From IMG/VR virus record IMGVR_UViG_3300036823_000120, positions 1 through 64,000 of that record: a DNA stretch of 64,000 nucleotides; one strand, given 5' to 3'. The notes below the pieces were generated by a model, which was given only the letters and a program-made list of their open reading frames with translations, was not told the origin of the DNA and made no database searches. The position numbers and the translations under genes were made by a program. How positions within the stretch are numbered: position 1 is the first letter of the stretch; each line of letters opens with the position of its first letter. This document shows positions 8,515-55,869 of the stretch, in pieces. This DNA is from a virus.

Positions 8515-8829
8515 TTAGGTCTCCTTTTTAGCTGAAAGATATTGAATAACTTCAATTGCAAAATCATTAGGAGACTCAACTAATGCTTTTGATATAAATT
8601 CTTGCTGTTCATTTTGATTCAATTTAGCTAATAGGTAGCCAATTGATACGCTTATACGCTCATTTTTCAGCAAAATAGTACAAGCATTATTCAACTTGTA
8701 AAGTTGAAGATAAAATATAACATATTCTACGGTTTGTTGGTACGCTTTTACTACTTCAGACAACGTGAGTCTACTGTTTTGGTTCACAAAATCAGCTAAT
8801 TCACGGCTATTTTTAGTATTTGCTTGCAC
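8515..8829 (-). CDS. ParB-like helix-turn-helix fragment
   Basis: 104 aa from a GTG at 8829, with AAGGAG 5 nt upstream inside the previous gene. Residues about 25-80 follow the ParB central domain (LTLSEVVKAYQQTVEYV, then LQLYKLNNACTILLKNERIS and YLLAKLNQNEQQEF). The nuclease-fold N-terminus is missing. It may act with the neighbouring ParB-like halves or be a degraded paralogue. Confidence 0.5.
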   Translation of the reverse strand: MQANTKNSRELADFVNQNSRLTLSEVVKAYQQTVEYVIFYLQLYKLNNACTILLKNERISVSIGYLLAKLNQNEQQEFISKALVESPNDFAIEVIQYLSAKKET

Positions 8830-9165
8830 AAAGGCTCCTTTAAGTTAAGCTTATCACACCAAATATGGTGTTTCTCCTTGATGTGAAGTCTCACTTTAGT
8901 CTCAAAAGCATATAGATCTTTGATGCAAGGATCTTTTAAAGCGTGTCCTTGCATTGAAGAATTCAATCTAGTCAATGCAATAGCACAAATCAGTGGAATT
9001 TGGTCATCCATTACCAATTTAATTGCTTTTGAGACAAGTTTCTTGAACTTAAGCATCTTAATGACCCATTTTGGGTCTCTACAAATCTGCTTATCACTGA
9101 TGGTTAGCACGTTACACTCAACTTGGGAACGTCCCAATGCTTTACAAGCACGAAAACTCATTAAC
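8796..9165 (-). pseudogene. C-terminal half of a frame-broken ParB-like gene
   Basis: The reading RACKALGRSQVECNVLTISD continues the ParB core that starts in another frame in 9142-9740 (GLIQPISVVERGEW, FMIVNE). The switch lies in GAGTTTTCG near 9155; removing one T restores a single frame. The remainder (KWVIKMLKFKKLVSKAIK, LICAIALTRL) fits the ParB helical domain. It is a real frameshift or a base-call error. Confidence 0.5.
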
Positions 9166-9740
9166 AATCATGAACCATTCGCCACGTTCCACGACAGAAA
9201 TTGGTTGAATAAGTCCAATCTCACGTACACTCGATACCAATTCTTTCATTCGGTCCTCATAATCCTTCGTGCAACTTTTGGATCGCAAGTAACAGCTTCT
9301 TCCAGATACAATCTTTGAGTAATAAGATGCAATTTGCTTAAAGCCAATGCCGTAAGCAAAGCAATTTGATCTTGTCTGACCAAATGAAGCACTTCTCAGA
9401 CATGAAAAGTGGCTCAAAGTGCTTACCATCAGATCGCTTAAATACTTTATCTGAGGGTTTTTGCTTAAAATTGCCCCATATTTCATTGTTACATTTGGTT
9501 TCAGCTTACACAAGAATCCACCTCCCCATACTGAGGAGCAATTGACAAGATTTTGACCATTAAAATAGAGCATTGCTCCATCACCAAGCGACACAAAATC
9601 GGCATAATTCCATTCTGTATCAGCAAATGTGTATACGCCAGCCTTCATTGCAGCTTCTTGGAACGTGTAACGTCGGTCAGATTCACGCTCATAAGCAACA
9701 TGAATAGGTGTGTTGCATTCAATATCAATTGATATATTTA
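9142..9740 (-). CDS. Unknown domain joined to a ParB N-terminal half
   Basis: 199 aa from ATG 9740 (MINISIDIECN). Residues 1-95 are related to the next gene upstream (shared FVSLGDGAMLYF versus FLSLGDGIVLFI), suggesting tandem duplication. Residues about 145-195 are the ParB start (DYEDRMKELVSSVREIGLIQ). The frame ends at FSCL, just where the ParB core should continue, so the ParB part is cut by a frameshift near 9155. The boundary between the two parts may also be frame-disrupted. Confidence 0.45.
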
Positions 9741-12231: not shown

Positions 12232-12432
12232 TTATTGCTTAATTAGCAAGTTCACTGGACCGTGATTGACAACTCGCATGAAGCAAGTATCTTTTTTGTT
12301 GGTCAAATCAACTTGCTTACCAACCTCTAATTTGACAGTGCCATAGTTTCCTGTTCTATTTTCTGTGATGATAAGCTCCAAGCTACCATCTGGTTAGATT
12401 TGGATATCAAGCGTGACAATTGGATCGTTCAT
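12232..12432 (-). CDS. Small protein interrupted by an in-frame TAA
   Basis: The frame opens with ATG 12432 (MNDPIVTLDIQI), meets TAA at 12394-12396, and continues without shift as PDGSLELIITENRTGNYG to a TAA at 12232. The ATG overlaps the stop of the upstream gene (ATGA). The two parts together make a plausible 66-residue beta-rich protein. It may be a mutated gene, a read-through site or a sequence error; CAA to TAA is a one-base change. Confidence 0.6.
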
Positions 12433-12605
12433 TTACAAACCTCTTTCCCGCAATTTGGACAACACCAAATATTTGTAGCTTCTTCAATAGCTAAAACATG
12501 ACATCTTTCACACTCAGGAATTGAATCAGTTACAAATATACTAAAAACCATATAACCAGCACTTAATGTGAAAATAACAATTATAAGAATTACTAATTCG
12601 CTCAT
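12429..12605 (-). CDS. Small membrane-anchored zinc-ribbon protein
   Basis: 58 aa (MSELVILIIVIFTLSAGY). One N-terminal membrane helix is followed by a zinc ribbon (CERCH then CCPNCG). Another ATG lies one codon upstream at 12608. Stop overlaps the next start (ATGA). Function unknown. Confidence 0.6.
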   Translation of the reverse strand: MSELVILIIVIFTLSAGYMVFSIFVTDSIPECERCHVLAIEEATNIWCCPNCGKEVCK

Positions 12606-12633
12606 CATTTAAGCTCCATGTTATAAGTTGAAA

Positions 12634-13677
12634 TTATCCTTCGATATTTTCATTTTTGAACTCTTTTCTGAACTGCTTCCAGCCTCTCATTGGACCAGAT
12701 CGAAGTTTCGGATCGTCGGTGGCCTGATTAATATGTTCTAAGGGTGAAACGTGTAGCACATCATCGTCACGTTCTATAAGCTTTTTACAAAGATTAATAT
12801 CCTCTTTAAAATCACGAATACCTTCATGGGTTAAGTAGCTAAGACGCGCTGATCGACCAGCAGAAATCATTTTTGCTTTCTCAATAGCGAATTCCATGTA
12901 ACTTTTTCCACTCTGATTTTCAGATTCAGTCAAGAAACCCGGTTCTTGAATTTGAATATTCAGCTTCATTATTTCTTCGCCCATAAGCTCATTGTCAGTC
13001 ATCTTGTCAAAGTATGGCAAGTGCCATTGACCAGCCCTCAAAACCCTTGGCTTGCACTTTGATATTTCGTCACGAATCATGCCTGCAATCTTCTGAAAGT
13101 GGCGTTCAGCAGCCGGATGACAACGCAAACGGAAAAAGTTTCGCCACTCTGTTCCAGTAAGCAAACATGTCATCCACATCCAAGGTTCTGTGAGACGATT
13201 ACAGAGGCTTTTATGTAGTCCCAAAGCAGCCAATTGGTCGGCTGATCGAACTGCATTGTCTCTTGCTTCAAGCCAAATTCGTTTGGCTTGAACTAAGGCA
13301 TCTCCGGTAAGTTCATCATCGTTGCTTTGCATTCCAGTTTGTTCTTTTCCCCAATGAATAGGAATAACTGGATTGCTCATAATATACGAGTACATACAAT
13401 TTGCAACGTAATATTCATATGTCTCATTTTCATCGAGACTAATTTCATTAAATTGTCCTTTACCAATTATCTGTGCTCCGGGTGGAAGTTCAGTAATTGT
13501 GACTTGATGCTTTCCCTTGCGTTTCCACGGAATTGCTCTACTTGAGGCACTATTTCGTGCTTTATCTCGATGTGTTAGCACTTCACCATGAATGAACCTA
13601 GGGTAAGTAGCCTGAATTGTATAAATTGGAATTCCACATGGGCCTATTGAAGCAAGTACAACTTTGGCGTCAAACAT
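12634..13677 (-). CDS. thyX: Flavin-dependent thymidylate synthase (ThyX family)
   Basis: 347 aa, longer than typical ThyX (about 220-250). The signature region reads VLTHRDKARNSASSRA at about residues 36-51, fitting the ThyX RHRX7S motif except that the first Arg is Thr. A later segment, TGTEWRNFFRLRCHPAAERH (about 173-192), matches the conserved helix that binds flavin and nucleotide. ThyX methylates dUMP to dTMP with methylene-tetrahydrofolate and FAD. With dut and the class II reductase it completes a dTMP route. Confidence 0.85.
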   Translation of the reverse strand: MFDAKVVLASIGPCGIPIYTIQATYPRFIHGEVLTHRDKARNSASSRAIPWKRKGKHQVTITELPPGAQIIGKGQFNEISLDENETYEYYVANCMYSYIMSNPVIPIHWGKEQTGMQSNDDELTGDALVQAKRIWLEARDNAVRSADQLAALGLHKSLCNRLTEPWMWMTCLLTGTEWRNFFRLRCHPAAERHFQKIAGMIRDEISKCKPRVLRAGQWHLPYFDKMTDNELMGEEIMKLNIQIQEPGFLTESENQSGKSYMEFAIEKAKMISAGRSARLSYLTHEGIRDFKEDINLCKKLIERDDDVLHVSPLEHINQATDDPKLRSGPMRGWKQFRKEFKNENIEG

Positions 13678-13753
13678 TATATTTTCCTAAGATAGTTTTT
13701 AGTTCAAGTTCCGTAATATGAAATGCTTTTATAAGTATTTCTCTATTTTCCAT
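13670..13753 (-). CDS. Very small hypothetical protein
   Basis: 27 aa (MENREILIKAFHITELELKT). Its start overlaps the upstream stop and its TGA overlaps the ATG of thyX, the pattern seen for real genes in this block. Could also be a leader peptide. Confidence 0.35.
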   Translation of the reverse strand: MENREILIKAFHITELELKTILGKYNV

Positions 13754-13865
13754 TAGGGTAAATTTTAAAAAGTTCACGAATAATTTCGTCTCTCTTTTCT
13801 TGAGTTAGAATAAATCTATGAACATTAGCTAAAATTTGATAAAATTTCATAAAAGCATAATTCAT
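13743..13865 (-). CDS. Very small hypothetical protein
   Basis: 40 aa (MNYAFMKFYQILANVHRFIL), helical. Its ATG overlaps the previous stop as ATGA, and its stop region overlaps the next ATG. Coupling supports a real gene; function unknown. Confidence 0.4.
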   Translation of the reverse strand: MNYAFMKFYQILANVHRFILTQEKRDEIIRELFKIYPNGK

Positions 13866-14332
13866 TTTAGTGCCCAATGTTGTCGTTGTTCAATTAATGT
13901 CATTAAATCACTAAGATTGCCATCGAAATTGACTTTTATCACATGTTGTCCAGATAATAAGATTATATAATTTTTCTCTTGCATAGACACAGCAATAATT
14001 TTTGTGACATCAAAATTAATATCAACATTTGTTTCAGAATCTCTTAAGCTCATGAAACGAGATTCGTAATTCATCTTAAAGTCCAAGAGACAAATATCAA
14101 GATCTTTGAGAACATTTCGCAATTCTCCACCATAGTTGGAAGCAATCTTGTTAATTGCTACTCGAACTTTAGTAAGTCTATCAAGTAGACTTAAGACTTC
14201 TAACTTTTCAGGCTCAACATCATCTAAGATATTCAAAGCATCTTTAACAGTTTTAGCTTGAACTTGACCAGTAACATCACTAAGTAGCCATTGAAGCTTT
14301 TCACGTAATGCGATTTTTTGTTGAGTATTCAT
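13862..14332 (-). CDS. Hypothetical protein
   Basis: 156 aa. The N-terminal two thirds are helical (KTVKDALNILDDVEPEKLEV), with a beta C-terminus (KNYIILLSGQHVIKVNF). Overlaps both neighbours by 4 nt. No family recognised. Confidence 0.6.
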   Translation of the reverse strand: MNTQQKIALREKLQWLLSDVTGQVQAKTVKDALNILDDVEPEKLEVLSLLDRLTKVRVAINKIASNYGGELRNVLKDLDICLLDFKMNYESRFMSLRDSETNVDINFDVTKIIAVSMQEKNYIILLSGQHVIKVNFDGNLSDLMTLIEQRQHWALK

Positions 14333-14556
14333 TTAACTGTTGCTTCGCTAAGCAGTAATATAATGGCTTTAAAATGAGACATGGCCCAATCTTTTGCACC
14401 AACAAGATCACTATTTTTCAGGAATTCCTTTTTCCCTAAGCATTCCATTTTGTAACGCCGATTCTCTGGCATCTTGGTTAACGTCAATAATTTGGCTGCC
14501 GGTTCCACTAGAAGTTGATAGACGCCAGGTTCGGATTCTTTCCAGAACAGTTTCAA
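14329..14556 (-). CDS. Hypothetical protein, possibly the true tail of its upstream neighbour
   Basis: 75 aa if started at the TTG at 14556 (KLFWKESEPGVYQLLVEP). The protein looks natural, but the start is weak and it overlaps the next gene by 146 nt. A one-base shift near AAATTTGAAAC (about 14558) would fuse it to the gene starting at 14833. Confidence 0.4.
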   Translation of the reverse strand: MKLFWKESEPGVYQLLVEPAAKLLTLTKMPENRRYKMECLGKKEFLKNSDLVGAKDWAMSHFKAIILLLSEATVK

Positions 14557-14833
14557 ATTTTAAATCCTCTGTTTCCCATATAAAATTATGTAGCTGACAT
14601 TCATTTGAAATATGTTTGCTGAACAATTCTCGTAAAACTTGTTGCAATTGTCGAGCTTCTTCTACTTTTGTCTCATAATTTGATTTCAAATCAAGTGGAA
14701 GTTCTACACCTTGAGTTTGAAATAGAAAAATTGGCTCTGCAATATCATTATATTTTTTCAATAAATATAATTCTTCATCTGTTAATTCAATGTCAATTAC
14801 TTCAACTTTTGTATAAAAGAGCTTAACTTTCAT
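14411..14833 (-). CDS. Hypothetical protein
   Basis: 140 aa (MKVKLFYTKVEVIDIELTDE). A coiled-coil-like helix lies at about residues 55-75. The last 45 residues (RTWRLSTSSGTGSQ) look less natural than the other frame, so the 3' end may be frameshifted into the gene 14329-14556. Confidence 0.5.
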   Translation of the reverse strand: MKVKLFYTKVEVIDIELTDEELYLLKKYNDIAEPIFLFQTQGVELPLDLKSNYETKVEEARQLQQVLRELFSKHISNECQLHNFIWETEDLKFETVLERIRTWRLSTSSGTGSQIIDVNQDARESALQNGMLREKGIPEK

Positions 14834-14834
14834 A

Positions 14835-14951
14835 TTAATTTATCTCCATAGGATGACCGCATTTGCCTTTAAGCATATGCTCTGCTTTAAGCATAATTAA
14901 GATAAGGCTTAAAATACGGTCATATTGATTTCTAAATTTAAGGTTTGCCAC
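14835..14951 (-). CDS. Small hypothetical protein
   Basis: 38 aa from a GTG at 14951 (ANLKFRNQYDRILSLILI; KCGHPMEIN at the end). No strong ribosome site, but the sequence is protein-like and fills the space between two genes. The CGH tail resembles zinc-binding ends of small phage proteins. Confidence 0.4.
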   Translation of the reverse strand: MANLKFRNQYDRILSLILIMLKAEHMLKGKCGHPMEIN

Positions 14952-15126
14952 CTAAGTGTATTGGTCCTTGATTACCTCCACTAAATCTAGTCCTTGACGT
15001 GCTTGATGCACGCTTCAAATTTGGTTGACTAGAACCAGTGCCAGGTAAAACTGCCTTCTGACTAGTCGCAGACTTAGCAGCGGCTCCAATTGACTTGGCA
15101 CTACCACTTTTGTTAGACTTAGCCAT
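14938..15126 (-). CDS. Small Ser/Lys-rich protein
   Basis: 62 aa, low complexity (SGSAKSIGAAAKSATSQKA), basic and probably disordered. It follows a similar basic small protein. Possibly nucleic-acid binding; no family recognised. Confidence 0.5.
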   Translation of the reverse strand: MAKSNKSGSAKSIGAAAKSATSQKAVLPGTGSSQPNLKRASSTSRTRFSGGNQGPIHLGGKP

Positions 15127-15128
15127 GA

Positions 15129-15269
15129 TTACTTCTTGCCTTTCTTACGGCTTTTGCCTGCCTTATTTAAGGCAATTGCAATAGCCTGTTTTTGTGGATA
15201 ACCAGAACTCTTCAATTCTTTGATGTTCTTACCAACAGTTTTGTTGCTTTTTCCTTTCTTTAGTGGCAT
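15129..15269 (-). CDS. Small basic phage-type protein
   Basis: 46 aa ([20 protein letters not shown] then [18 protein letters not shown]). This K-x-NI-E-L-x-SG-x-PQKQA-x-AIAL pattern is well known among small conserved phage proteins of unknown function. Strong match by pattern. Confidence 0.75.
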
Positions 15270-15315
15270 TATACAATCCTCTTATTGCTTATCTTTCAAA
15301 ATTGAAAGATTAAAG

Positions 15316-15516
15316 CTAATATCCAGGTTCAAGATGAGAATCATCATACTCTTGATCTACGATATCATAATCATCATGGTCACATGGACCTTCATAGAGG
15401 TCTGTTTCTCCATTTGCATCTTTGAAAAGCCATTCTTTTGGCTTACCTTCATCTAAATCTACATTACTAACCCATCCATAACAACTACATTCCTTACAAA
15501 CGAGTTTGTAATTCAT
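15316..15516 (-). CDS. Small acidic Cys-containing protein
   Basis: 66 aa (MNYKLVCKECSCYGWVSN). N-terminal CKECSC and a later CDHDDYD could bind a metal. Its ATG overlaps the upstream TGA (ATGA). Function unknown. Confidence 0.5.
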   Translation of the reverse strand: MNYKLVCKECSCYGWVSNVDLDEGKPKEWLFKDANGETDLYEGPCDHDDYDIVDQEYDDSHLEPGY

Positions 15517-15808
15517 TGTTTTTCCACAAGAGGTAATGATTTCCAGCGTAATTGAATAAGATCTTTATGTATAATAGGATCAAAAGCAATATTGTTTTCA
15601 ATATGACCTGCACATGCAAATTTCGGTGACATGTGACAAGGTTGAATTTCCATATAAAATGGATGAATAGTCTCACCCGGTTCATTAATTTTATGAAATG
15701 GACATTCACTACATTTATTACCAATTGATTTTTCTTTTTAAGTTTTGTGAGTCGTTCAATCTCTTCCTTTTTGGCCAAGATATATTTAGCTTTTTCATAT
15801 TCATTCAT
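15513..15808 (-). pseudogene. Frameshifted small zinc-binding protein gene
   Basis: The gene starts MNEYEKAKYILAKKEEIERL and must shift -1 in the run AAAAAGAAAAA (about 15733-15743) to continue as KSIGNKCSECPFHKINEPGE and so on, ending VEKQ with a TGA that overlaps the next ATG. The shifted part has CSEC and CHMSPKFAC metal-binding pairs. The coupled end supports the shifted frame as genuine. It could be programmed -1 slippage, a mutation or a homopolymer error. Confidence 0.6.
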
Positions 15809-15963
15809 TTTTTAACTTTCTGCTTTTTAGGAAAGATATAAGTTCTAAATCGACCTTTCCAATTAGCACATTTATTAATGTGCTTATTCCAATCTCTTGT
15901 GCCTTTTCTAGATTCTTCTACCTTTATTTCACGACCACAATATTTGCATTTCTTGAGTATCAT
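15805..15963 (-). CDS. Small zinc-finger protein
   Basis: 52 aa (MILKKCKYCGREI). Ligands CKYC and HINKC form a C2HC-type finger; the C-terminus is basic. Start overlaps the ligase stop (ATGA) and its stop overlaps the next ATG. Likely nucleic-acid binding. Confidence 0.6.
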   Translation of the reverse strand: MILKKCKYCGREIKVEESRKGTRDWNKHINKCANWKGRFRTYIFPKKQKVKK

Positions 15964-17027
15964 TCTTCTGGTCTCACTCTCTTAAAACGAGCCTCTTTTG
16001 GAATACCACCATCACTTAATTCTCTATAAGTGAAGGTAATAATACTTCCAACTGGGAACTGAATAGAAAAAGGCTGATCGCTAAAGCTACCAGCATTATT
16101 AATAGCCCAAACTTGGCCAAATTCTGTAAGTTCGCGTTCCTTATCAGTAAAGCCTCCAATATCAAGCTGGACACCATTATAAAGCACTCGGATGCTACCG
16201 AGTCTACCGTGATGCTTGCCATTACCTGCGATATAACCCAAAAGTTGTGCTTCATCGTCTTTGTCTGGTTTGTATTTAAATAGCCAATTACTTCTATATG
16301 GTTCCCACTCCCATGATGGATGACGTAGCATCACGCCTTCACCACCTTCATCAGTGATTTCTGACAAAAGTTGTTCAAGTCGTGCATCTGCATTCACAGT
16401 CATGAATGGCAGAAGTTCTTGCTTATGCAGCAAGACATTGGATTCACCACGAATCCAATATTCATCGCCAACCTTCTTGCATTCTTTCTCAAGAAGATTA
16501 TGTGTGAACTCAAAACTTGTTGGAGTACCAGCATCTACGATCCCAAGATTTACCAAACAATGAGCTTGATTAATTGTCTTCTTGAAGTTTGGGTTATTAA
16601 TTCGACCATCTTTAAAAAGCACGCCATAAGTTGGACTATCAAAGACGTAGAACTTGATCTTGTTCCATTCTTCGACATTTGGTTCATGCTTCTTGACAAT
16701 TTTCATTGTCTTTTGAAAAGATTGTCTGCCCATCCAAAGCTCACCATCAAGACAACGATCACGAGGCAATGAATTAAGAAAATCTGACGGTGCATAGATA
16801 ATTTTGCCATACCTACTAAACAGTCCAGTAGCAATTGAAATCTTTTTGTCCTTTTCGATATTAGCAAAAGGAACAGTGTCAATAGACCTACCGCGAGCAG
16901 CAGGAATCCAAGTCGCACGCATCCCGTCCAACTTCTCGCTGCAAAACATACCCCCAATCCTATGCTTTGACTTGTCGAGAACAGAGGATAACATGACAAA
17001 TTCACGATTGGTCCTCACTGATGGCAT
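15960..17027 (-). CDS. ATP-dependent DNA ligase
   Basis: 355 aa from ATG 17027, chosen because it follows the upstream stop and has GAGGT 6 nt before it. Ligase motifs in order: EKLDGMRATW (motif I, Lys to be adenylylated, about residue 32), RCLDGELWMGR (III, about 90), EGGEGVMLRHP (IV, about 215) and WLFKYKPDKDD (V, about 240), then an OB-fold domain. It seals nicks during replication and repair using ATP. Short, single-polypeptide phage type. Confidence 0.9.
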   Translation of the reverse strand: MPSVRTNREFVMLSSVLDKSKHRIGGMFCSEKLDGMRATWIPAARGRSIDTVPFANIEKDKKISIATGLFSRYGKIIYAPSDFLNSLPRDRCLDGELWMGRQSFQKTMKIVKKHEPNVEEWNKIKFYVFDSPTYGVLFKDGRINNPNFKKTINQAHCLVNLGIVDAGTPTSFEFTHNLLEKECKKVGDEYWIRGESNVLLHKQELLPFMTVNADARLEQLLSEITDEGGEGVMLRHPSWEWEPYRSNWLFKYKPDKDDEAQLLGYIAGNGKHHGRLGSIRVLYNGVQLDIGGFTDKERELTEFGQVWAINNAGSFSDQPFSIQFPVGSIITFTYRELSDGGIPKEARFKRVRPEE

Positions 17028-17028
17028 T

Positions 17029-17472
17029 TTAACCTCGAAACTGGTTACCATATTTGGCTGAACATCTTGGCTGACAAAATGGACCAGCTTTTCCTTTTCT
17101 CTCAGCCTCAGCACGTCTCATTTGTTGTTGAGCAGACATAACAAAGGGACTTTCGCATTGATAACAAATCATTACGATATAGTCCTCATATTTTCTATGA
17201 GTTTTGTTATGATTTTCAGTAGATTTTAAGACTTGCAAATTGCTCAATTCATCATTAAGCTTATTGTCGTCTATATGATCTACTTCTTCATGACTTTCGA
17301 GCAAACGACCTAAATGTTCTTGCATCTTGAATCTGCTCAAGTGCAGAGTGAACTGTTCATCTTTTGAGAAGTAGATTACTACTTCTCTACGTTGCTTAAC
17401 TTCATTTAAATAAGGACCAAGAATTCTTGCATTTCTACACACGCAAGAAATAAGCTTCTGGTTAGTTGCCAT
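17029..17472 (-). CDS. HNH-type homing-endonuclease-like protein
   Basis: 147 aa. Residues about 60-90 read VDHIDDNKLNDELSNLQVL, the HNH_3 pattern of free-standing phage homing endonucleases. The C-terminus has a zinc ribbon (CYQCESPF, FCQPRCS). Adjacent to the ligase by 1 nt. Such genes spread by cutting alleles lacking them. Confidence 0.75.
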   Translation of the reverse strand: MATNQKLISCVCRNARILGPYLNEVKQRREVVIYFSKDEQFTLHLSRFKMQEHLGRLLESHEEVDHIDDNKLNDELSNLQVLKSTENHNKTHRKYEDYIVMICYQCESPFVMSAQQQMRRAEAERKGKAGPFCQPRCSAKYGNQFRG

Positions 17473-17857
17473 AAGCTGTATTGTCCTCAGCTAACTTTGC
17501 AATGTTCAACAAATATGGATAATCACATCGATTACAACATTCTTCCATTGAAGTCACCATAGCCATAGCTAAGGTGAAAGCATCTTGTTTCCTGGTTTCA
17601 AGATTAGGAGTTGTACCTCCAGTAACCTTAGCGACTTCATCAAATTCTGCGGATTCTTTGGCACGATAGAACACAATCCAACTCTTGTTATCGTATTCGA
17701 TACACCATTCACGGTAACCTGCACCGACTGACTTAAAAGCGATCAATACTTTGTCGCTATTGGACGATTGAAGTCGCCAAATTATCCGATGCTTATCGCC
17801 CTTTGCAAAGTTCTTTTTCAGAACTGCTTGGCGGTGCCAATCGTATTGTGTCAACAT
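17462..17857 (-). CDS. Hypothetical protein
   Basis: 131 aa (MLTQYDWHRQAVLKKNFAKG). A beta-rich N-terminus is followed by a C-terminal helix with Cys residues (ECCNRCDYPYLL). No family recognised. Its ATG overlaps the upstream stop. Confidence 0.55.
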   Translation of the reverse strand: MLTQYDWHRQAVLKKNFAKGDKHRIIWRLQSSNSDKVLIAFKSVGAGYREWCIEYDNKSWIVFYRAKESAEFDEVAKVTGGTTPNLETRKQDAFTLAMAMVTSMEECCNRCDYPYLLNIAKLAEDNTAYGN

Positions 17858-18216
17858 AAGCTTTTACCTTTGTACACAGATTTCCCAAGTTTTTCAGCTA
17901 ATTCAAGATAACTTTGCCAGTTAAGACGGAACTCATCACTCTTCTCAAAAGCTCCAATCATGTTCATGACAAGAACTAAAGAAGCATTTTTCTGGATATT
18001 TTTGTTTCCAGATTTCCAACCACTAATAATGGCAATTGTCTAGCCAGTGCCAAGAATAGGGCTATCGGAACGACCAACAATCCAACCAGAAGTTCCATAA
18101 TACAAAATGTATCTGTAAAATTCTTCTTTATTTTGGAATTCAAGATTGAGCCTATACCCATTCAGTTCAACTTGAATCGAAAACGATTTGACGTCAGATG
18201 ATTTCTTTTTTGGCAT
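17851..18216 (-). CDS. Protein interrupted by an in-frame TAG
   Basis: Starts MPKKKSSDVKSFSIQVEL at 18216. The frame meets TAG at 18040-18042 after SPILGTG and continues unshifted as TIAIISGWKSGNKNIQ to KGKSLC and a TGA overlapping the next ATG. Total 122 codons. The exact coupling at both ends argues that the full frame was recently functional. CAG to TAG is a one-base change. Function unknown. Confidence 0.6.
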
Positions 18217-18397
18217 TGAACTTAATTGTTCCTGCCGCAAACTTGGCTTTTTCATCGTCAAGTTGGTTACTAGCTTTTTCTTCATCCCAATCAACCTCCT
18301 TAAGTACACGTTCACAATGAGTAAAATCTGCATGAGTTTTCTTGATAAGCCTCAGTATGGCACTATACTGATTGACAGTTAGTTCAACTGGTTGCAT
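18194..18397 (-). CDS. Hypothetical small protein
   Basis: 67 aa (MQPVELTVNQYSAILRLIKK). Helical and charged. The start overlaps the end of the upstream frameshifted gene, and the end overlaps the next start. Function unknown. Confidence 0.55.
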   Translation of the reverse strand: MQPVELTVNQYSAILRLIKKTHADFTHCERVLKEVDWDEEKASNQLDDEKAKFAAGTIKFNAKKEII

Positions 18398-18709
18398 CGA
18401 CGTTCCTTTTCGCTTATAACTAGGTCTAAGAATTTATAATAATCGTGAACCTCAGAATATCCTGTTTCATTGTCAACCAACAAAACATGGTTCTTTGTTA
18501 ATATCCACGTTGTTATCGGCGTTGATTGCAATACTAAGATCATCATAATTTTTATTCCAATCAACAATTGCAATTGAACCACAACGCAGGCACTTAAAGC
18601 GTATTACTGTGCAAAACTCTTGCACAGTTTGAATCGCTTTGATATCGTTGTCATTTAAATTCTTGCAACCACCTTCACAGTGCCAAATTCCATTGGTATT
18701 TAACATCAC
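18379..18709 (-). pseudogene. Frameshifted zinc-ribbon-like gene
   Basis: The N-terminus reads MMLNTNGIWHCEGGCKNL with a second pair FKCLRCGS. After VDINKEP the frame hits a stop, but the +1 frame continues KNHVLLVDNETGYSEVHDYY to CNQLN and ends in the overlap with the next ATG at 18397. The shift lies near AACAAAGAACC (about 18485-18495). Mutation, error or programmed shift are all possible. Confidence 0.5.
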
Positions 18710-19059
18710 TTATCCTCCATTATGAATTTATCATCTTCACCGCCCACACGTTCCATAAGCAAGAAACTGTGAATCATTATTTTTTGTGCATCTTTACCAA
18801 TTTCATCTCGAACACACTTTTTATCTGAATCAAGTTGCCCGACCCAAATACCTTTATCATTTTCCCAATCTTTAACATAGCGTTTATAGTAAGACATTGC
18901 TCGTTGAGCAGTCGGAAAAGCATAAGTATATTCATGCCTCTCGTCACTCATAAGTCTACCTCTCGCATCATACATTCTATGTGAAATAGTGACAATATAG
19001 ACAAGAATACTGTCATTGCTCGAATCGTATGTGAGCTTCGTTGACTTTAGCTTCATCAC
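18706..19059 (-). CDS. Hypothetical protein
   Basis: 117 aa. A beta strand and helix region (DEYTYAFPTAQRAMSYYKRY has a typical AxxYYxRY helix) is seen in several small proteins here. Overlaps neighbours by 4 nt at both ends. Function unknown. Confidence 0.55.
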   Translation of the reverse strand: MMKLKSTKLTYDSSNDSILVYIVTISHRMYDARGRLMSDERHEYTYAFPTAQRAMSYYKRYVKDWENDKGIWVGQLDSDKKCVRDEIGKDAQKIMIHSFLLMERVGGEDDKFIMEDK

Positions 19060-19244
19060 TTTTCCTCAATTGAAGAAAGCTCTTTTAAAACTAATATTTT
19101 TGCAGCTATTTTTTGTGCATAAATTTCAATTATATTATTAGCAAGAACCTTTTTCATATGTATTAATAATTTCCTTTCTAATTCAATCTCTTGTCTTAGC
19201 CAATCTACAAATTTAGTTCGTTCTTGTAATGTGAGAACTATCAT
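19056..19244 (-). CDS. Hypothetical small protein, tandem paralogue A
   Basis: 62 aa (MIVLTLQERTKFVDWLRQEI). It is clearly related to the next gene (LTQEERIKLSSWLKQEIEL), so the two arose by tandem duplication. Helical, coiled-coil-like. Confidence 0.6.
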   Translation of the reverse strand: MIVLTLQERTKFVDWLRQEIELERKLLIHMKKVLANNIIEIYAQKIAAKILVLKELSSIEEK

Positions 19245-19450
19245 GTCTCTCTTTCTTGTAGCTTATAATCACGAAAACTATCTTGTTCAACTTCTTGTTC
19301 AACAATAATTTTCGCAATAATTTTTAATCTATAAATTTTACTACTAGAAGACAAATTATCCATTTGCTTTAATGTAATCTTTCCTAATTCAATCTCTTGC
19401 TTCAACCAACTAGAAAGCTTTATTCTCTCTTCTTGTGTTAATATAATCAT
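19241..19450 (-). CDS. Hypothetical small protein, tandem paralogue B
   Basis: 69 aa from ATG 19450 (MIILTQEERIKLSSWLKQEI), overlapping the upstream TGA. Paralogue of 19056-19244 over the first 50 residues; helical. Function unknown. Confidence 0.6.
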   Translation of the reverse strand: MIILTQEERIKLSSWLKQEIELGKITLKQMDNLSSSSKIYRLKIIAKIIVEQEVEQDSFRDYKLQERET

Positions 19451-19833
19451 GTAAGCCATCCTGTAACCATAACATCTAATACATAACGATCAACACGCCT
19501 ATCTCCCTTAAGTCTGTATTGTTCCCAGGGAGCTTTTGCATTACAATCTTCATTGAAAGTTATATCATTGTCGTGCATTTTCTTCTTGAGAAAATCTTTG
19601 AGCGTTGGAATCTCACGTAAAAAGCATGGTTCAACACCAATCATATAGGCAAGATGATTAATGAGAATAGCTGGTTCGTCTCCATTTTTTACATCCTCAT
19701 CTATATCTGTATCGGTATTGACACCAATGATAAATCCGTCAGCTTTCCGATATGGTTAAAGCTTTTCTGTTTCAATCAAAAATAAGTCTGGACCTTCTTC
19801 CAAGCCTTCAGTCCAAACTAAAAGTGTCCACAT
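19447..19833 (-). CDS. Protein interrupted by an in-frame TAA
   Basis: Starts at ATG 19833 (MWTLLVWTEGLEEGPDLFLI), meets TAA at 19756-19758 after ETEKL, and continues unshifted as PYRKADGFIIGVNTDTDIDE to VTGWLT and a TGA coupled to the next gene. Total 129 codons. The part after the stop has its own internal ATG at 19644, so re-initiation could give a shorter product. Function unknown. Confidence 0.6.
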
Positions 19834-21613: not shown

Positions 21614-21826
21614 CTATCTCATAAAGATTTCGTAAGTGCCGTGTGTGCCAATAGCAACAGACACCGGACGTAGCATATTAGATGGTACTTGATTTTTCTC
21701 ACAATCTTTGAGAGCTTCTTCAAGTGTAGTATGAATACCATCTACTCCAACAAACCACACTTCAAATCTTTTGATGCCTTGAGTTTCACCATTTAAGATG
21801 ATAGATCTATCATCTAAGTTAATCAT
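21614..21826 (-). CDS. Hypothetical small protein
   Basis: 70 aa from ATG 21826 (MINLDDRSIILNGETQGIKR). It contains FEVWFVGVDGIHTTLEEALK, again the strand then helix pattern common in this block. Function unknown. Confidence 0.55.
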   Translation of the reverse strand: MINLDDRSIILNGETQGIKRFEVWFVGVDGIHTTLEEALKDCEKNQVPSNMLRPVSVAIGTHGTYEIFMR

Positions 21827-22286
21827 TTGAAACCTCATTTAAATTTGCAAAGTCTCCAAAGTAAAGTAAAGCTGCTTTGTTATAAGCTTTTGCTGCAAGT
21901 ATTTCATCTTTGAATACTCCTAGATGGATAAGCTTACCATTTAATTTAATCGAAGCTTTCCATTTTCTTTGGTTAATACTCCAAGATACACCTTTATATC
22001 TTGATGTACAACCTTGTTTCTTTTTAGAGTTTGCTTGATTTTGGCTATTATTAGCTTCTCTTAGATTTGATCGTTGATTATTCAGCTTATTTCGATCTTT
22101 ATGATCTGTCATTAGCTTATAACCAAGTCTCTTACCTAAGATAACATGCAAATATTCATGTTGTCTGCATGTTGTCCTTACATATCCTTCTGTGTCTAAG
22201 CACCAAGTTTGAAAAGCAAACTCTAACCGATCCTCGTCACTAACTAAAACAATTACATTTGAATTAGTCAAAGTGAGGGTTGTCAT
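21819..22286 (-). CDS. AP2/HNH homing endonuclease
   Basis: 155 aa from ATG 22286. Residues about 40-75 carry the HNH motif (TDHKDRNKLNNQRSNLRE), and about 95-145 an AP2-type DNA-binding domain (SRYKGVSWSINQRKWKA, AAKAYNKAALLYFGDFANLN). Closely related copies lie at 24010-24469 (broken) and 46244-46696. Free-standing homing endonuclease; overlaps the exonuclease stop by 23 nt, so it inserted at a gene junction. Confidence 0.85.
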   Translation of the reverse strand: MTTLTLTNSNVIVLVSDEDRLEFAFQTWCLDTEGYVRTTCRQHEYLHVILGKRLGYKLMTDHKDRNKLNNQRSNLREANNSQNQANSKKKQGCTSRYKGVSWSINQRKWKASIKLNGKLIHLGVFKDEILAAKAYNKAALLYFGDFANLNEVSND

Positions 22287-22965
22287 TTGAGTCAATCCAG
22301 ATTCGTTTTTCGTAAGCAATGCGACATAATTCAACAACGTCCATGCAATCTTCAATTGCAGTGTGAGCAGTTTCAAGATGTTGAAACACACCTCCATGCA
22401 ACACAGCACGGGCTTTTGCCAATTTCAATTCTGGTGGAACACGATCCGGTGGTTCGATGTAGTCGAAAGTTGGGTCCAAAACTCGATGCTTGAAGATGCC
22501 TTCTCTATCGTTGATGAAAGGTTGTGGCAAAATATCAATGAACTTTTTGTCAAAAGTTCCGAAGTTCTTTCCGGCACCGATCATCTTCATGATCTTACCT
22601 TTCATAATAAGCTTACCGTATTCTCGGCGATCTTCAGGTTCCGTGTGTCCAATTGACCGCAACCATGCCTGGATATAATCTGATAACCTATCAATTGGTA
22701 TTTGCATTTCTCTATCGAAGAGATGATAAATTTCACACTTCTTGTCAATTGGAATTTCTTCATTGATCAATCTCTTTATAAGTTTCTCGTGAAGTTTCAA
22801 ACAATAACTCGTCCACTTCATATTCTCAGGAATCACATATCTGTGAAAGATTTCAAGAGGTACGTTACGATCGAACAGATCAAAGCTTATAATCGCAATT
22901 TCTAATAGACTATGGACCTTTTCATCGAGACCTGTAGTTTCGATATCTATCGCAAAACAATTCAT
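22264..22965 (-). CDS. DnaQ-like 3'-5' exonuclease
   Basis: 233 aa. ExoI motif CFAIDIETTGLDEK at the N-terminus (Asp and Glu ligands), ExoII-like NFGTFDKKF at about residues 134-142, and ExoIII HTAIEDCMDVVEL at about 206-218 (HxAxxD). Two-metal exonuclease of the DEDDh type, acting in proofreading or RNA/DNA turnover. A second family member lies at 62140-62808. Confidence 0.85.
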   Translation of the reverse strand: MNCFAIDIETTGLDEKVHSLLEIAIISFDLFDRNVPLEIFHRYVIPENMKWTSYCLKLHEKLIKRLINEEIPIDKKCEIYHLFDREMQIPIDRLSDYIQAWLRSIGHTEPEDRREYGKLIMKGKIMKMIGAGKNFGTFDKKFIDILPQPFINDREGIFKHRVLDPTFDYIEPPDRVPPELKLAKARAVLHGGVFQHLETAHTAIEDCMDVVELCRIAYEKRIWIDSNDNPHFD

Positions 22966-28084: not shown

Positions 28085-28166
28085 AGTGCCGAGGGAAGGA
28101 TTTGAACCTTCACTTGAGTCCAAGTCTTCCATTTGGACGGCTGTGCTACCGTTACACTACCCCGAC
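28085..28166 (-). tRNA. tRNA-like gene, isotype not resolved
   Basis: Acceptor stem GTCGGGG/CCTCGGC, D-arm GTGTAACGGTAGCAC and a canonical T-arm (GAAGG TTCAAAT CCTTC) are present. The middle is about 7 nt longer than normal and pairs as GTCCAA/TTGGAC with a 9-nt loop containing TGGAA, or else forms a small variable arm. No anticodon assigned. Confidence 0.6.
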
Positions 28167-34462: not shown

Positions 34463-35134
34463 TCATGCAACATACCTCTTAGTTCCAATTTGGACTGTGC
34501 AACCTTTGGCAAGCTTTTTACTACTTAACAATGTCGAGCTAACTTTAAAATTTGTATCACGAATGCCGCGAAAGGCAATGCTTTTCAGCGAAAACATTGG
34601 CTTCATCATTTTAATCACATCTACTATGTTTGATTCTTGACGGAACCAAGCATAATATTGTACATCAAGATGCCAAAGCTTTTGAAGCCGCCAGTTTGAA
34701 AAAACATCAAACAATTGTGCTCGTTCGGCTCGACTTGCTCGTAAGATCATATGTCGAATCGGTTGAGCAGATAGAATATTTGGACGTTGACTAAGATATT
34801 CAGGTGTTATATCTATCGTGGTATAAGCATCACCTAAGCGGCCATTAAAATAACACAAGTTTCGCTTTTCTTCAAGCTGATTTGGAGATTCTTGAGCATA
34901 ATTTTTGTTCCAATTATGAATAATCATATCCAATGCTGAAACAATATTTGGTAAAAGCTCACCAGTAGAGAACGTTCTAATGATCGTTTTAGTATTGATC
35001 CACTGCCGCAAAATAGACGATAGTTCGTGGTCGCGTGACTCGTCTGATTCGTCCAGACAATCACAGTAGATGAGGATGCCCGTGTCATCTCCATCGTTAA
35101 TCGAGACTTTCCAATCAGGCAACAATGTCGGCAT
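34463..35134 (-). CDS. Hypothetical protein
   Basis: 223 aa from ATG 35134 (MPTLLPDWKVSINDGDDTG), with GGAG 8 nt upstream; ATG 35140 is the alternative. The second half has a QKLWHLDVQYYAWFRQESNI segment and ends in a beta-rich tail (GCTVQIGTKRYVA). An extended -10 (TGCTATGAT) lies about 20 nt upstream. No family recognised; style resembles host-type conserved proteins. Confidence 0.55.
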   Translation of the reverse strand: MPTLLPDWKVSINDGDDTGILIYCDCLDESDESRDHELSSILRQWINTKTIIRTFSTGELLPNIVSALDMIIHNWNKNYAQESPNQLEEKRNLCYFNGRLGDAYTTIDITPEYLSQRPNILSAQPIRHMILRASRAERAQLFDVFSNWRLQKLWHLDVQYYAWFRQESNIVDVIKMMKPMFSLKSIAFRGIRDTNFKVSSTLLSSKKLAKGCTVQIGTKRYVA

Positions 35135-49216: not shown

Positions 49217-50143
49217 TTATTCACTTTTATCACCAACTAATGCCTTACTTACCCAAGAAGGCATAATAAAATCTTTACCTTCTTTCCTAGCTGCTGCTTG
49301 AACTTCATTAAGCAATTCAATTGTACTAATCTTTGCGGTACACCATGCTGCAAATCGAGTTGCTAAACACGCACCAAGAGTATCATAAATGAGACCACCC
49401 ATTTCAACTATCTCTGGTCCCTTTCGCTCACGAGTTTTCATTGCGTCGCTACTTCGTTGAATAGAAGGAACAACGCTGAGAGATTCTCCTTTTTCGCGCT
49501 TTTCTTTGACTTTCTTCACAAATTCAATTTGTTGTTCAACTTTTCGAAGACTCGCACAGTGTTTGATTTGTGCTTGAGTAAGCAAACCAGCAGCGGCAAC
49601 TGCTTGAATTTCCTTCGGCAAACTCAAAAGAGCTTTACGAATTTGCACCCATCCACGAGAAGTACCAGTGAGATCGGCAACTTCAACTTCATTGAAGTGA
49701 ATATCAAAGTAATATTTAATTGCATAAGCTTCTTGAAGAATATTTAATTGCTTACGATGCAAATTCTCTCTTAGGTTCTGTGTTCGTGCGGCTGTTTCAT
49801 CAAGACCTTCTTCAATGAAACATGGAATCTTTGAATGCTTCTCAGCAACGACAGGATCAGCATCTAAGGCGTTAATTTCAAATGCCGTAAAACGTCTATG
49901 TCCTGCCACAATACGGTATTTCTTACCTGATATAGCATCGTGTGGTTGTACAGTAATTGGAGTATCAAGCTTTCGGTCCTTGATATCTCGTGCAAGATCA
50001 AGAACATCGATTGGGCTTATGTTTCCACGACAATTGAAGTTTTCATCAAGAAAAATATCTTCAATAGGAATTAAAAATACTTTGTAGCCAGTTATAGGAT
50101 CAATATCAACTGTTTCTTGATTATTTGCAATTGCTATAGACAT
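49217..50143 (-). CDS. ParB-like nuclease-fold protein
   Basis: 308 aa. ParB core: ILDLARDIKDRKLDTPITVQ-like segment at about 50-70, then KKYRIVAGHRRFTAFEINAL (GHRR loop, about 80-95), the helix-turn-helix KYYFDIHFNEVEVADLTGTS and RGWVQIRKALLSLP, and the QAQIKHCASLRKVEQ-like segment. Complete chromosome-partition-like architecture without an N-terminal ParA-binding region seen. It lies between helicase and polymerase, so may load or regulate replication. Confidence 0.85.
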   Translation of the reverse strand: MSIAIANNQETVDIDPITGYKVFLIPIEDIFLDENFNCRGNISPIDVLDLARDIKDRKLDTPITVQPHDAISGKKYRIVAGHRRFTAFEINALDADPVVAEKHSKIPCFIEEGLDETAARTQNLRENLHRKQLNILQEAYAIKYYFDIHFNEVEVADLTGTSRGWVQIRKALLSLPKEIQAVAAAGLLTQAQIKHCASLRKVEQQIEFVKKVKEKREKGESLSVVPSIQRSSDAMKTRERKGPEIVEMGGLIYDTLGACLATRFAAWCTAKISTIELLNEVQAAARKEGKDFIMPSWVSKALVGDKSE

Positions 50144-50297: not shown

Positions 50298-52931
50298 CTA
50301 GTTTCTAGAATCACTTGTTACTCCCATTTCATGGGCTTTTGCAGCTTCTTGTTGAGCTTGTTTCATTTCTTCTAGTACCAAACCCATACTCAAACTTTGC
50401 AAATCACGTTTGCGTTTGAGATTTTTTAATACATAAGCATCAGTTGGAAGATGGAGCAAATCAATTATAGTAGCTCCTCTTTCTACTGACATACCTGCCC
50501 TATGTATGCGATCTTCTGATTGCAATCTAGACTCACCATTGAAATCATTGCTGAAATAAATGATGGCTTTTGATGCCGTCAGTGTCAGGCCCATTCCCGC
50601 TGATCCAGCGTGCCCAACAAAAGCTATCTTTTGATCGTATTGCTTAGGATTCTGAAAGACTTTCAAGAATTCTACGTTATCTTTTGGCAAGAAGTTACCA
50701 TATGGCACCCATCCACGTCCGTCCACACGCATCACTTGCCAACCAAGCTTAGTCACATGGTCACTAACTCGATCAATTGTTCCTGTGAAAGCTCCATAGA
50801 TAACAATTCTATTCTCATCTTCAAAATCATCTGAGAGAAGTTCTGTAAGAGTATCAAATTTTGGACTATCGACTGTTTTTACTTCTCTCTTAATAACATT
50901 AGTTGTTCCGCGGCCTTCGCAAGCAGGACACTTAATTTTTTCATTAAGATCGTTATCGAAAAGCTCTCTATTGCCTTTACAAGTTGTACAAGTTGCAGTA
51001 GATTCGACAGTTTCAATATATTGAAAGCCATCTGATAACTCACGAAGCTTTGTAAGAGCTTCAATTGCATTGCGACAACCAACTTGTATCAAACTAGCCG
51101 CACGAATCATCGGCAGACTTGGCTTTATATTAATTTCTCGATATACCTTATCAGGTAGATCAAGACAATCTTTCTTGTGTTGAACTAATACAAGTCCACT
51201 CATTCGCCGATAAAGTTGACTAATTTCATCTTTCAAAGCTATATATTCATGGAAGTTTTCTTTGTCTTCTTTGGCATAATGATTAGCATGAGAACTAAGC
51301 TTACCACATTTATTACAGATTGCTTGACCACCATCTCGCCATGCAATGAATTTCGGGAACCGACCACCAGTGATATCACCAACGTATTCAGTAACAGCTA
51401 ATCGTTCCTTGAACTTGTTGACATCACCTTCAATCAAGAAGCCTGGACAAGCAGTTTCACATTGCCAATACCAATCTACAGGGGACTTGGGAGCGGGAGA
51501 ACCACTCATAAGTACAATGTATGCATCGTGTCCATAGTTATTACGCATACTTTCAGCAACATGAAAAGCTGATTGTGAGCGTTGAGCAGTTGGTGTCTTT
51601 AATTTTGAAGATTCATCGAATATAATTCCACGAGGTGGCATTTTCCGTGGAATCCAATTTTCAACTGTTTTCTTCAATTCATCATAAGTCATAAATATTG
51701 GACGTATGAAAGATTTCCAATTCCAAAACTCAAGACGAACACTTGCAATTGATGATTTTGTTCCAATGTACCACCAATCTGCGATACCACTTCGTTCCAT
51801 TGCCTCTATTGAGGCAAGAGTCTTTCCACAATTATGTACTACAATACCATTTGCGACAAAATTTCTATAAGGATCATCACAAATAACATCATAGACAAAT
51901 AATTCTCCATTATTTTCAATACTTATAATTTTATCTTTATGTGGTATAAATTGACATTTCTCAGTATGTAGATTTACATAATTTGTTTGGCCATGTAATT
52001 TTGCATGCTTACTACTTGAACTTAATAGTTCCAAGTTTTCAATTTTATTATCATTTTTAATTTCATTTTTATGATGAACTATCTCATTTTCTTTAATATA
52101 TCGTCCAAGATGTTCTTCCATAATTAAAATGTGTTCATATACTCCACCTGTAGACCATCTTGGATGCTTGTTTTTTAAGCCTCCAACTCTAATATAGCCA
52201 TCTTTATCTTTCCATTTACCATTAACTAAAATTTCATCACCAATATTTAGCTTTTCTGCTGAAATATAAGTATTATTATTTACAGCAATTTCGTGATCTA
52301 AAGTTACACAAATTTCATAACCTAATTTTGTTTTTATTTTTAAAGTAGACTTTTTACCTTTGCTTAAGACATTTTTAATTTTATTTAACTTTAATATCCC
52401 AGCACAATTACTTCGAATATAAGTTTCTATTCCTAAATCCCAGCATCTGCCTTTTAAATTATGAAATTTCTCAAAAAGATTTTTTAGTTTTATCTCAAAT
52501 CCTTTTCCAGCTCTATTTACATGCACGAGTGCTTCACCATCAACGCATCCCATTTCCGCAGCTAGTATACATTGCTTACGTAGCAAAATATGACCAATCT
52601 CATATTTTTGATGCGTATATACAGGTCGTTGAAAAGTTAGCTTATCAACAAATGATTCAAGTGAAGCGTCGTATCGAGAAAAAGGATTCTTACCTTCTAA
52701 GTGTTCAATACGAAATTCATTTCGTCGTGACTTATTAACGCGCCAAACTTTCATTGGATTATCTTCGTCTCTACCAAGCCATTTTGAACCTTGCATCACT
52801 TTCAATTTATCTTTGAATTCGAAAGCTGAACTAATATAATAATACTTTGAATCTTCATAAATAGTAGCTGGATGACGAAACTGCTTTCCTTCAAACTTAG
52901 TTTGTCTTTCAGCTATAAAATTAATTGCCAT
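50298..52931 (-). CDS. SNF2/DEAD-type helicase containing an intein
   Basis: 877 aa precursor; 638 aa after splicing. The Walker A motif is rebuilt across the intein as AAEMG-CGKTLASIEAM. Walker B is GIIFDESSKL and motif III VLMSGSPAP. Domain 2 has IVIYGAFTGTIDRVSDH, AFVGHAGSAGMGLTLTAS and SEDRIHRAGM (motif VI). A DnaJ-like zinc ribbon (CTTCKGNREL, CPACEGRG) lies in the middle. Probably DNA remodelling at replication forks or recombination. Confidence 0.9.
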   Translation of the reverse strand: MAINFIAERQTKFEGKQFRHPATIYEDSKYYYISSAFEFKDKLKVMQGSKWLGRDEDNPMKVWRVNKSRRNEFRIEHLEGKNPFSRYDASLESFVDKLTFQRPVYTHQKYEIGHILLRKQCILAAEMGCVDGEALVHVNRAGKGFEIKLKNLFEKFHNLKGRCWDLGIETYIRSNCAGILKLNKIKNVLSKGKKSTLKIKTKLGYEICVTLDHEIAVNNNTYISAEKLNIGDEILVNGKWKDKDGYIRVGGLKNKHPRWSTGGVYEHILIMEEHLGRYIKENEIVHHKNEIKNDNKIENLELLSSSSKHAKLHGQTNYVNLHTEKCQFIPHKDKIISIENNGELFVYDVICDDPYRNFVANGIVVHNCGKTLASIEAMERSGIADWWYIGTKSSIASVRLEFWNWKSFIRPIFMTYDELKKTVENWIPRKMPPRGIIFDESSKLKTPTAQRSQSAFHVAESMRNNYGHDAYIVLMSGSPAPKSPVDWYWQCETACPGFLIEGDVNKFKERLAVTEYVGDITGGRFPKFIAWRDGGQAICNKCGKLSSHANHYAKEDKENFHEYIALKDEISQLYRRMSGLVLVQHKKDCLDLPDKVYREINIKPSLPMIRAASLIQVGCRNAIEALTKLRELSDGFQYIETVESTATCTTCKGNRELFDNDLNEKIKCPACEGRGTTNVIKREVKTVDSPKFDTLTELLSDDFEDENRIVIYGAFTGTIDRVSDHVTKLGWQVMRVDGRGWVPYGNFLPKDNVEFLKVFQNPKQYDQKIAFVGHAGSAGMGLTLTASKAIIYFSNDFNGESRLQSEDRIHRAGMSVERGATIIDLLHLPTDAYVLKNLKRKRDLQSLSMGLVLEEMKQAQQEAAKAHEMGVTSDSRN
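51831..52547 (-). mobile_element. Intein with HNH endonuclease domain (239 aa)
   Basis: Residues 129-367 of the helicase precursor. It begins with Cys (CVDGEALVHV, block A), has a block B-like VTLDHEIAV, and ends FVYDVIC...NGIVVHN before Cys (blocks F and G, with terminal His-Asn). An HNH segment (HILIMEEHLGRYIKENEIVH then HKNEIKNDNKIENLELL) lies in the centre. Insertion in Walker A is a classic intein site because removal must be precise. Confidence 0.9.
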
Positions 52932-54738: not shown

Positions 54739-55869
54739 TTACTGGCCATTCTGAGGCACAAAGGACGGGTCAATTGGTTGATTCAGATTGACAGGTACAA
54801 CAGGGTGACCATTAACGCCAACACCGGCAGTAGTTGTAACTGCTTTTGCGGCCTGATCTTTCTTTTGTTGGCGTTCTGCTTCACGCTTCTTCTTATCCTC
54901 ATCACGTTCCTTCTTACGTTGCTCATACCGATGACGATCAAATTCGACAGATTCAGGATCGAGATGCATTGAATACTTGAGAGCAATTTCAGCAGAAGCT
55001 AGGCACATAAGCTTTACTTCATCAGGTTGATTCTGAACCTGTTGAAGAACAAGGGTTCCAACCTTAGACGAAGTGAATTCTTTCTTCGCAAAAGCGGCAA
55101 GTTCTTCCTTGAGAGTCACAGGACGTTGAAGTCGAGGAACAGGAACAAACCCTTCCTCAGCCGGAGCACGTCCTTCAGAGCGAGCATCACGAATCGCCTT
55201 ATAAGCAGAAGTTGCGATTGGGATGAATTCATTCGGGGACAACGAAATTGCCTGATTCGCAAGTTCATCTTGCTTTTCAGGAGGCAACTTGGCGAGTGCA
55301 TAAGCATTCGCCAACCCGATGTCACCACTATCAACCAACTTTTGGATAGGCTCATTAAGCTTCACGAGTTGCAAGCGATCACGTAGCCAAGAGTTCGACT
55401 TACTAAGACGTGAGGCCAACTCAGTCATAGTTAAAAGCGGATTTGCACTCATGATCTTGATGAGTGCCTTTGTGTATTGTACCGCCTTAGTTTCAATCCT
55501 ATGTACATTGGCAAGAATCTGAGCTTCAATCAAATCCGCGTCTTTCAGCGAACCAATTTGTGCAGGGATTTCATTAAGACCTGCATCCATTGCAGCATTG
55601 AAACGGTGTAAGCCATCAATAAGACCGTAAAGGATTTCACCACTTGCAGGGTCTTTAATTTCTCGCACCAAAATGGGATTCATAATCCCACGCTTTTTCA
55701 CACTGTCTACAAGTTGGATATAATCTTCATCTTGCTTATCGACAGCGGTGCGAAGTGCTTCACTGTTCTCACGAATCTTCTTAAGAGGAATCTTTGCTTG
55801 TGTCGTATTCTTGAAGTTAAAATCGTCCATTTTATAATTCTGGCTTCTTGGGTGGTGGTACAGTTGCAA
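54739..55869 (-). CDS. ParB-like protein
   Basis: 376 aa. ParB order: VDSVKKRGIMNPILVREIKD (about 45-65), YGLIDGLHRFNAAMDAGLNE (GLHR loop, about 80-100), LTMTELASRLSKSNSWLRDR helix-turn-helix (about 145-165) and LANAYALAKLPPEKQDELA. The C-terminus is a charged coiled coil (KKERDEDKKKREAERQQKK) with Pro/Val-rich tail. It overlaps the short ParB-like gene by 38 nt. Likely DNA-binding regulator or partition-like protein. Confidence 0.85.
   Translation of the reverse strand: MQLYHHPRSQNYKMDDFNFKNTTQAKIPLKKIRENSEALRTAVDKQDEDYIQLVDSVKKRGIMNPILVREIKDPASGEILYGLIDGLHRFNAAMDAGLNEIPAQIGSLKDADLIEAQILANVHRIETKAVQYTKALIKIMSANPLLTMTELASRLSKSNSWLRDRLQLVKLNEPIQKLVDSGDIGLANAYALAKLPPEKQDELANQAISLSPNEFIPIATSAYKAIRDARSEGRAPAEEGFVPVPRLQRPVTLKEELAAFAKKEFTSSKVGTLVLQQVQNQPDEVKLMCLASAEIALKYSMHLDPESVEFDRHRYEQRKKERDEDKKKREAERQQKKDQAAKAVTTTAGVGVNGHPVVPVNLNQPIDPSFVPQNGQ

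What the first reader, a model, noticed from the sequence alone, without database searches (positions are those of the whole stretch)
12232..19833. Three accessory genes with a single in-frame TAA or TAG in otherwise perfect frames
Seen: TAA at 12394-12396, TAG at 18040-18042 and TAA at 19756-19758 each interrupt a continuous frame whose start and final stop are both coupled to neighbours. Sequence on both sides is protein-like. Each could come from a Gln codon by one C-to-T change. Whole-genome recoding is unlikely because TAA ends thyX and other genes. Options: read-through or suppressor tRNA (several unusual tRNAs are present), recent mutation, C deamination, or base-call error.
Basis: partly seen in the sequence, partly recalled or inferred. 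Interest (0 to 1): 0.72.

Follow-up and report, generated by a model that had tools for sequence, protein, structure and literature searches.

The report
Broken accessory genes in a phage
Three small genes of an uncultured bacterial virus really are cut by one stop codon each, but other genes nearby are broken by frame slips as well and there is no sign of a machinery that reads through stops, so these look like ordinary broken genes or sequence errors, not a new decoding trick.

Summary
On the minus strand of this 94.6 kb phage contig, TAA 12394-12396, TAG 18040-18042 and TAA 19756-19758 each split a frame that is coding-like on both sides, has a coupled start and end, and has no nearby restart. 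The read-through and suppressor options find no support: all three stop codons end many genes, the contig carries only tRNA-Ile(UAU), tRNA-Leu(UAA) and one odd tRNA-like gene with no stop anticodon, and the stop contexts show no stimulating structure. Best reading: recent loss-of-function mutations in dispensable genes, or consensus errors; these two cannot be separated without reads or relatives, and no close relative was found. Ordinary; low interest.

The parts
12232..12432 (-). gene A, 66-codon frame of unknown family, interrupted at codon 13
   Evidence: translation; start coupled to TGA at 12429; tail of 53 open codons without early ATG
12394..12396 (-). in-frame TAA of gene A
17851..18216 (-). 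gene B, 121-codon frame, interrupted at codon 59; weakly similar to its downstream neighbour on both sides of the stop
   Evidence: phmmer E 0.16; 17 of 2000 shuffles reach the score
18040..18042 (-). in-frame TAG of gene B
17462..17857 (-). intact neighbour and weak paralogue of gene B (131 aa)
19447..19833 (-). gene C, 128-codon frame of unknown family, interrupted at codon 26
   Evidence: no family match
19756..19758 (-). in-frame TAA of gene C
   Evidence: (gain 7.2)
14329..14833 (-). gene broken by a frame change near 14555-14570, at a short A/T run; the last frame ends in an ATGA overlap with the next gene
   Evidence: three-frame translation. Not called by the Viterbi scan
15513..15808 (-). 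gene broken by a frame change near 15725-15740, in A-rich runs
   Evidence: (gain 10.0)
8515..9500 (-). ParB-like gene region whose pieces lie in two frames (at least two frame changes)
   Evidence: tblastn of the phage's own ParB (54742-55869) hits the pieces in different frames, E 9e-9 for the best; ParB_N and HTH_ParB fragments

Best explanation
The three genes are broken copies of small, dispensable phage genes. One base substitution in each created a premature stop so recently that the rest of the frame still looks coding. They belong to a wider set of broken genes in this contig: single stops plus frameshifts, nearly all seen at 8.5-20 kb and one in a homing-endonuclease-type gene, while the long replication, nucleotide-metabolism and structural genes are intact. 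Shown: the stops, the coding-like frames on both sides, the frameshifted neighbours, the intact core genes, and the lack of a suppressor tRNA in the contig. Inferred: that the changes are real mutations under relaxed selection, so that only a short N-terminal peptide is made from A and C and half a protein from B.
For: Stops and frames. Frame breaks in neighbours. Broken HNH/AP2 gene in L002 3930-4420 (HNH_3 E 3.1e-9 in a frame without its own start; the N-terminal part is in another frame; intact paralogues at window 21819-22409 and L003 4142-4627). About 11,800 codons in ORFs of 300+ aa are uninterrupted. Eight supported breaks in the remaining ~59 kb would predict about 4.8 in that ~35 kb if breaks were uniform; none is seen (own arithmetic, P about 0.008). 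Standard stop usage. No suppressor tRNA.
Against: No relative was found that shows an intact or equally broken copy, so decay cannot be dated and error cannot be excluded. Frame breaks sit near short homopolymer runs, as some sequencing errors do. The core-versus-accessory contrast is partly circular, since long ORFs are by definition unbroken, and I inspected the 8-20 kb region more closely than the rest.
Confidence: 0.52

Rival explanations
1. Consensus errors in a metagenome assembly (locally low coverage, error-prone reads, or a minority variant chosen by the assembler) created the stops and the frameshifts; the real phage genes are intact.
For: Frame changes near short homopolymer runs; several breaks crowded into one ParB-like gene that otherwise keeps coding-like pieces; coding signal undiminished on both sides of each stop.
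Against: Uniform errors should also break the ~35 kb of long core genes, and none is broken. Read depth, sequencing platform and assembly data are not available here.
Confidence: 0.38
2. Programmed read-through or suppression: the stops are decoded at some rate and full-length proteins are made.
For: Coding-like sequence continues to a coupled terminator; two of the three contexts are TAA followed by CCA.
Against: No tRNA with a CUA, UUA or UCA anticodon in 94.6 kb; both TAA and TAG are involved; TAA, TAG and TGA end many genes normally; no stable structure around the stops (z -0.96, -0.39, -1.18); a single stop per gene, in only three genes.
Confidence: 0.06
3. The pieces are separate short genes: a small upstream ORF and a downstream ORF that starts at an internal codon.
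For: Tandem same-frame genes do occur here, with a start right after the stop (24010, 36757, 28399). Gene A has a TTG four codons after its stop.
Against: No ATG for 24-38 codons behind the three stops although the skipped codons score as coding. Upstream pieces of 12 and 25 codons are unlikely genes. Gene B aligns with its neighbour on both sides of the stop.
Confidence: 0.04

Closest known systems
Nonsense and frameshift pseudogenes of dispensable phage genes
   Same: Single disabling changes in otherwise coding-like short accessory genes; a homing-endonuclease-type gene is broken too; core genes intact
   Different: No relative is at hand to show the intact form or to date the change
Stop-recoded phages, e.g. 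phAss-1 (TAG inside 41 ORFs plus three suppressor tRNA genes; PMC10607447)
   Same: In-frame stop codons inside coding-like phage frames
   Different: Only three genes, two different stop codons, none in a core gene, no suppressor tRNA, and all stops used as terminators
Consensus errors in metagenome-assembled viral contigs
   Same: Mixture of stray stops and frame changes near homopolymer runs
   Different: Long core genes are free of them, so a uniform error rate does not fit well; reads are unavailable

Membership tests
Stop-codon-recoded phage (code 15 or similar) | Reassigned stop occurs in many genes, core genes included | tested here: not met
   Only three read-through calls in the 50 kb gene block, none in a long core gene
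Stop-codon-recoded phage (code 15 or similar) | Reassigned stop is avoided as a terminator | tested here: not met
   TAA 37, TGA 32 and TAG 15 gene ends among 84 ORFs
Stop-codon-recoded phage (code 15 or similar) | Suppressor tRNA gene | tested here: not met
   Only Ile-UAU, Leu-UAA and an odd tRNA-like gene without a stop anticodon; none in the other 30.6 kb
Programmed stop-codon read-through | Stimulating 3' context or structure | tested here: not met
   Folds of 66 nt around each stop: z -0.96, -0.39, -1.18; single-sequence test only
Programmed stop-codon read-through | Stop conserved at the same codon in relatives | not testable with these tools
   No relatives of genes B or C found; gene A was not searched in nucleotide collections by itself
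Nonsense pseudogene | Premature stop in a frame that is coding-like on both sides | tested here: met
Nonsense pseudogene | Relatives or paralogues without the stop | tested here: inconclusive
   Gene B has only a weak paralogue that spans the site (E 0.16; 17/2000 shuffles); none for A and C
Consensus sequencing error | Reads disagree with the consensus | not testable with these tools
   no reads held

The most novel reading that the evidence does not exclude
A handful of accessory phage genes carry a retained early stop that is read through at low level, by a host suppressor or an unrecognised signal, so that both short and full-length products are made.
Probability: 0.04. Interest if true: 0.55.

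Novelty: already known. Interest (0 to 1): 0.14.

Why it matters
Mainly as a caution: in an uncultured phage contig, a few in-frame stops together with frameshifts in dispensable genes point to gene decay or consensus error, not to a changed genetic code. If read-through were shown, it would be a rare case of gene-specific use of two different stop codons in a phage with a standard code.

Tried and rejected
Recoding: rejected (stop usage and tRNAs). Suppressor tRNA in the odd tRNA-like gene at 28087-28166: its anticodon arm does not fold cleanly and no plausible loop offers CUA, UUA or UCA. Relatives: thyX gave one at 38% identity and the terminase five at 45-48%; ligase, DNA polymerase and the read-through proteins B and C gave none, and DNA patterns across sites B and C found no second copy. 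Family searches of A, B and C found nothing above chance. The structure of read-through C from a single sequence has mean pLDDT 44.6 and says nothing. A first, looser gene-model script did not require start codons for coupled genes and was replaced. Several weak frameshift calls (36.25, 37.6, 38.6, 44.8, 49.2 kb) are probably overlapping gene ends or TTG starts and are not counted; calls at 10.0, 10.8, 25.3 and 45.7 kb were left undecided.

Full report
What is there. The window is the first 64 kb of a 94,582-base linear virus record. It encodes a tailed phage: terminase-like protein, DNA polymerase, primase, an intein-bearing helicase, ribonucleotide reductase, ThyX, DNA ligase and ParB-like proteins. 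The finding lies in a tightly packed minus-strand block of small genes. Starts and ends are coupled to neighbours, as described.

More than chance. A 3-periodic coding model trained on the window's own long ORFs gives positive scores on both sides of each stop. Of 103 gene ends in the block, the median in-frame open tail is 5 codons. Ordinary ends with long coding-like tails all have a start codon within 6 codons (ATG, or TTG at 34463). The three sites have tails of 53, 62 and 102 codons, no ATG for 24-38 codons and positive coding scores. A Viterbi gene model allowed to pass stops at a penalty chose exactly these three sites in 50 kb and none in 42.5 kb of Vibrio phage SHOU24 as a control. 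Gene B also resembles its downstream neighbour on both sides of the stop, weakly (phmmer E 0.16; 17 of 2000 shuffles reach the alignment score).

Stops are not the only damage. The gene at 15513-15808 changes frame near 15725-15740 (gain 10.0). The gene at 14329-14833 changes frame near 14560, and its last frame ends in an ATGA overlap with the next gene (seen by eye in the three-frame translation, not called by the model). A ParB-like region at 8.5-9.5 kb matches the phage's own intact ParB (54742-55869) in pieces lying in two different frames (E 9e-9 for the best piece; ParB_N and HTH_ParB fragments). Outside the window, the HNH/AP2 gene at L002 3930-4420 (about 68 kb of the contig) has its HNH domain in a frame without a start and its N-terminus in another frame, while two intact paralogues exist. 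I describe where frames break and do not write out repaired genes.

Read-through and recoding. Gene ends use TAA 37, TGA 32 and TAG 15 times. ARAGORN finds tRNA-Ile(UAU) and tRNA-Leu(UAA). Rfam adds a third, tRNA-like gene at 28087-28166 with a good acceptor stem and T arm but a disordered anticodon region without CUA, UUA or UCA. The remaining 30.6 kb has none. Sequence around the stops folds no better than shuffles (z -0.96, -0.39, -1.18). [quoted passage not shown] The proposed Gln origin is one of several: for TAA, Glu, Lys, Gln and Tyr are comparable; for TAG, Tyr, Trp and Lys lead.

Mutation or error. Long core genes (about 11,800 codons in ORFs of 300+ aa, about 35 kb) carry no break. 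Counting eight supported breaks (three stops, two frameshifted small genes, two in the ParB-like gene, one HNH) in the other ~59 kb, a uniform rate would predict about 4.8 in the core, P(0) about 0.008 (own arithmetic). That favours relaxed selection on dispensable genes, or a locally poor consensus, over uniform error. The comparison is partly circular because long ORFs are by definition unbroken, and because I looked hardest at 8-20 kb. Short homopolymer runs near the frame breaks fit slippage mutation and sequencing error alike. No read data are held. No relative of B or C, and no close relative of the core proteins tried, was found in the phage, viral-contig or genome collections. The two ordinary explanations stay unresolved at about 0.52 to 0.38.

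Verdict. It is an ordinary set of broken accessory genes, real or artefactual.

Noticed in passing
window 50298-52931 (-): Helicase gene carries an in-frame intein with an HNH endonuclease: Intein_splicing PF14890 E 4.5e-11, HNH_3 E 4.8e-11, helicase domain behind it.
   Followed up: partly
window 28087-28166 (-): tRNA-like gene found by Rfam (41.8 bits) but missed by ARAGORN; good acceptor stem and T arm, disordered anticodon arm, possible extra variable arm. Degenerate or unusual tRNA.
   Followed up: partly
window 8515-9500 (-): ParB-like region with several ParB HTH-like pieces in two frames; the phage has two further ParB-like genes at 49217-50143 and 54739-55869.
   Followed up: partly
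window 19056-19450 (-): Two tandem paralogous small genes (about 62 and 69 aa) right behind gene C.
   Followed up: no
L002 3930-4420 (-): Frameshifted HNH/AP2 homing-endonuclease-type gene with intact paralogues at window 21819-22409 and L003 4142-4627.
   Followed up: yes
L003 13941-14362: Dense A/T-rich tandem repeats near the right end of the contig.
   Followed up: no
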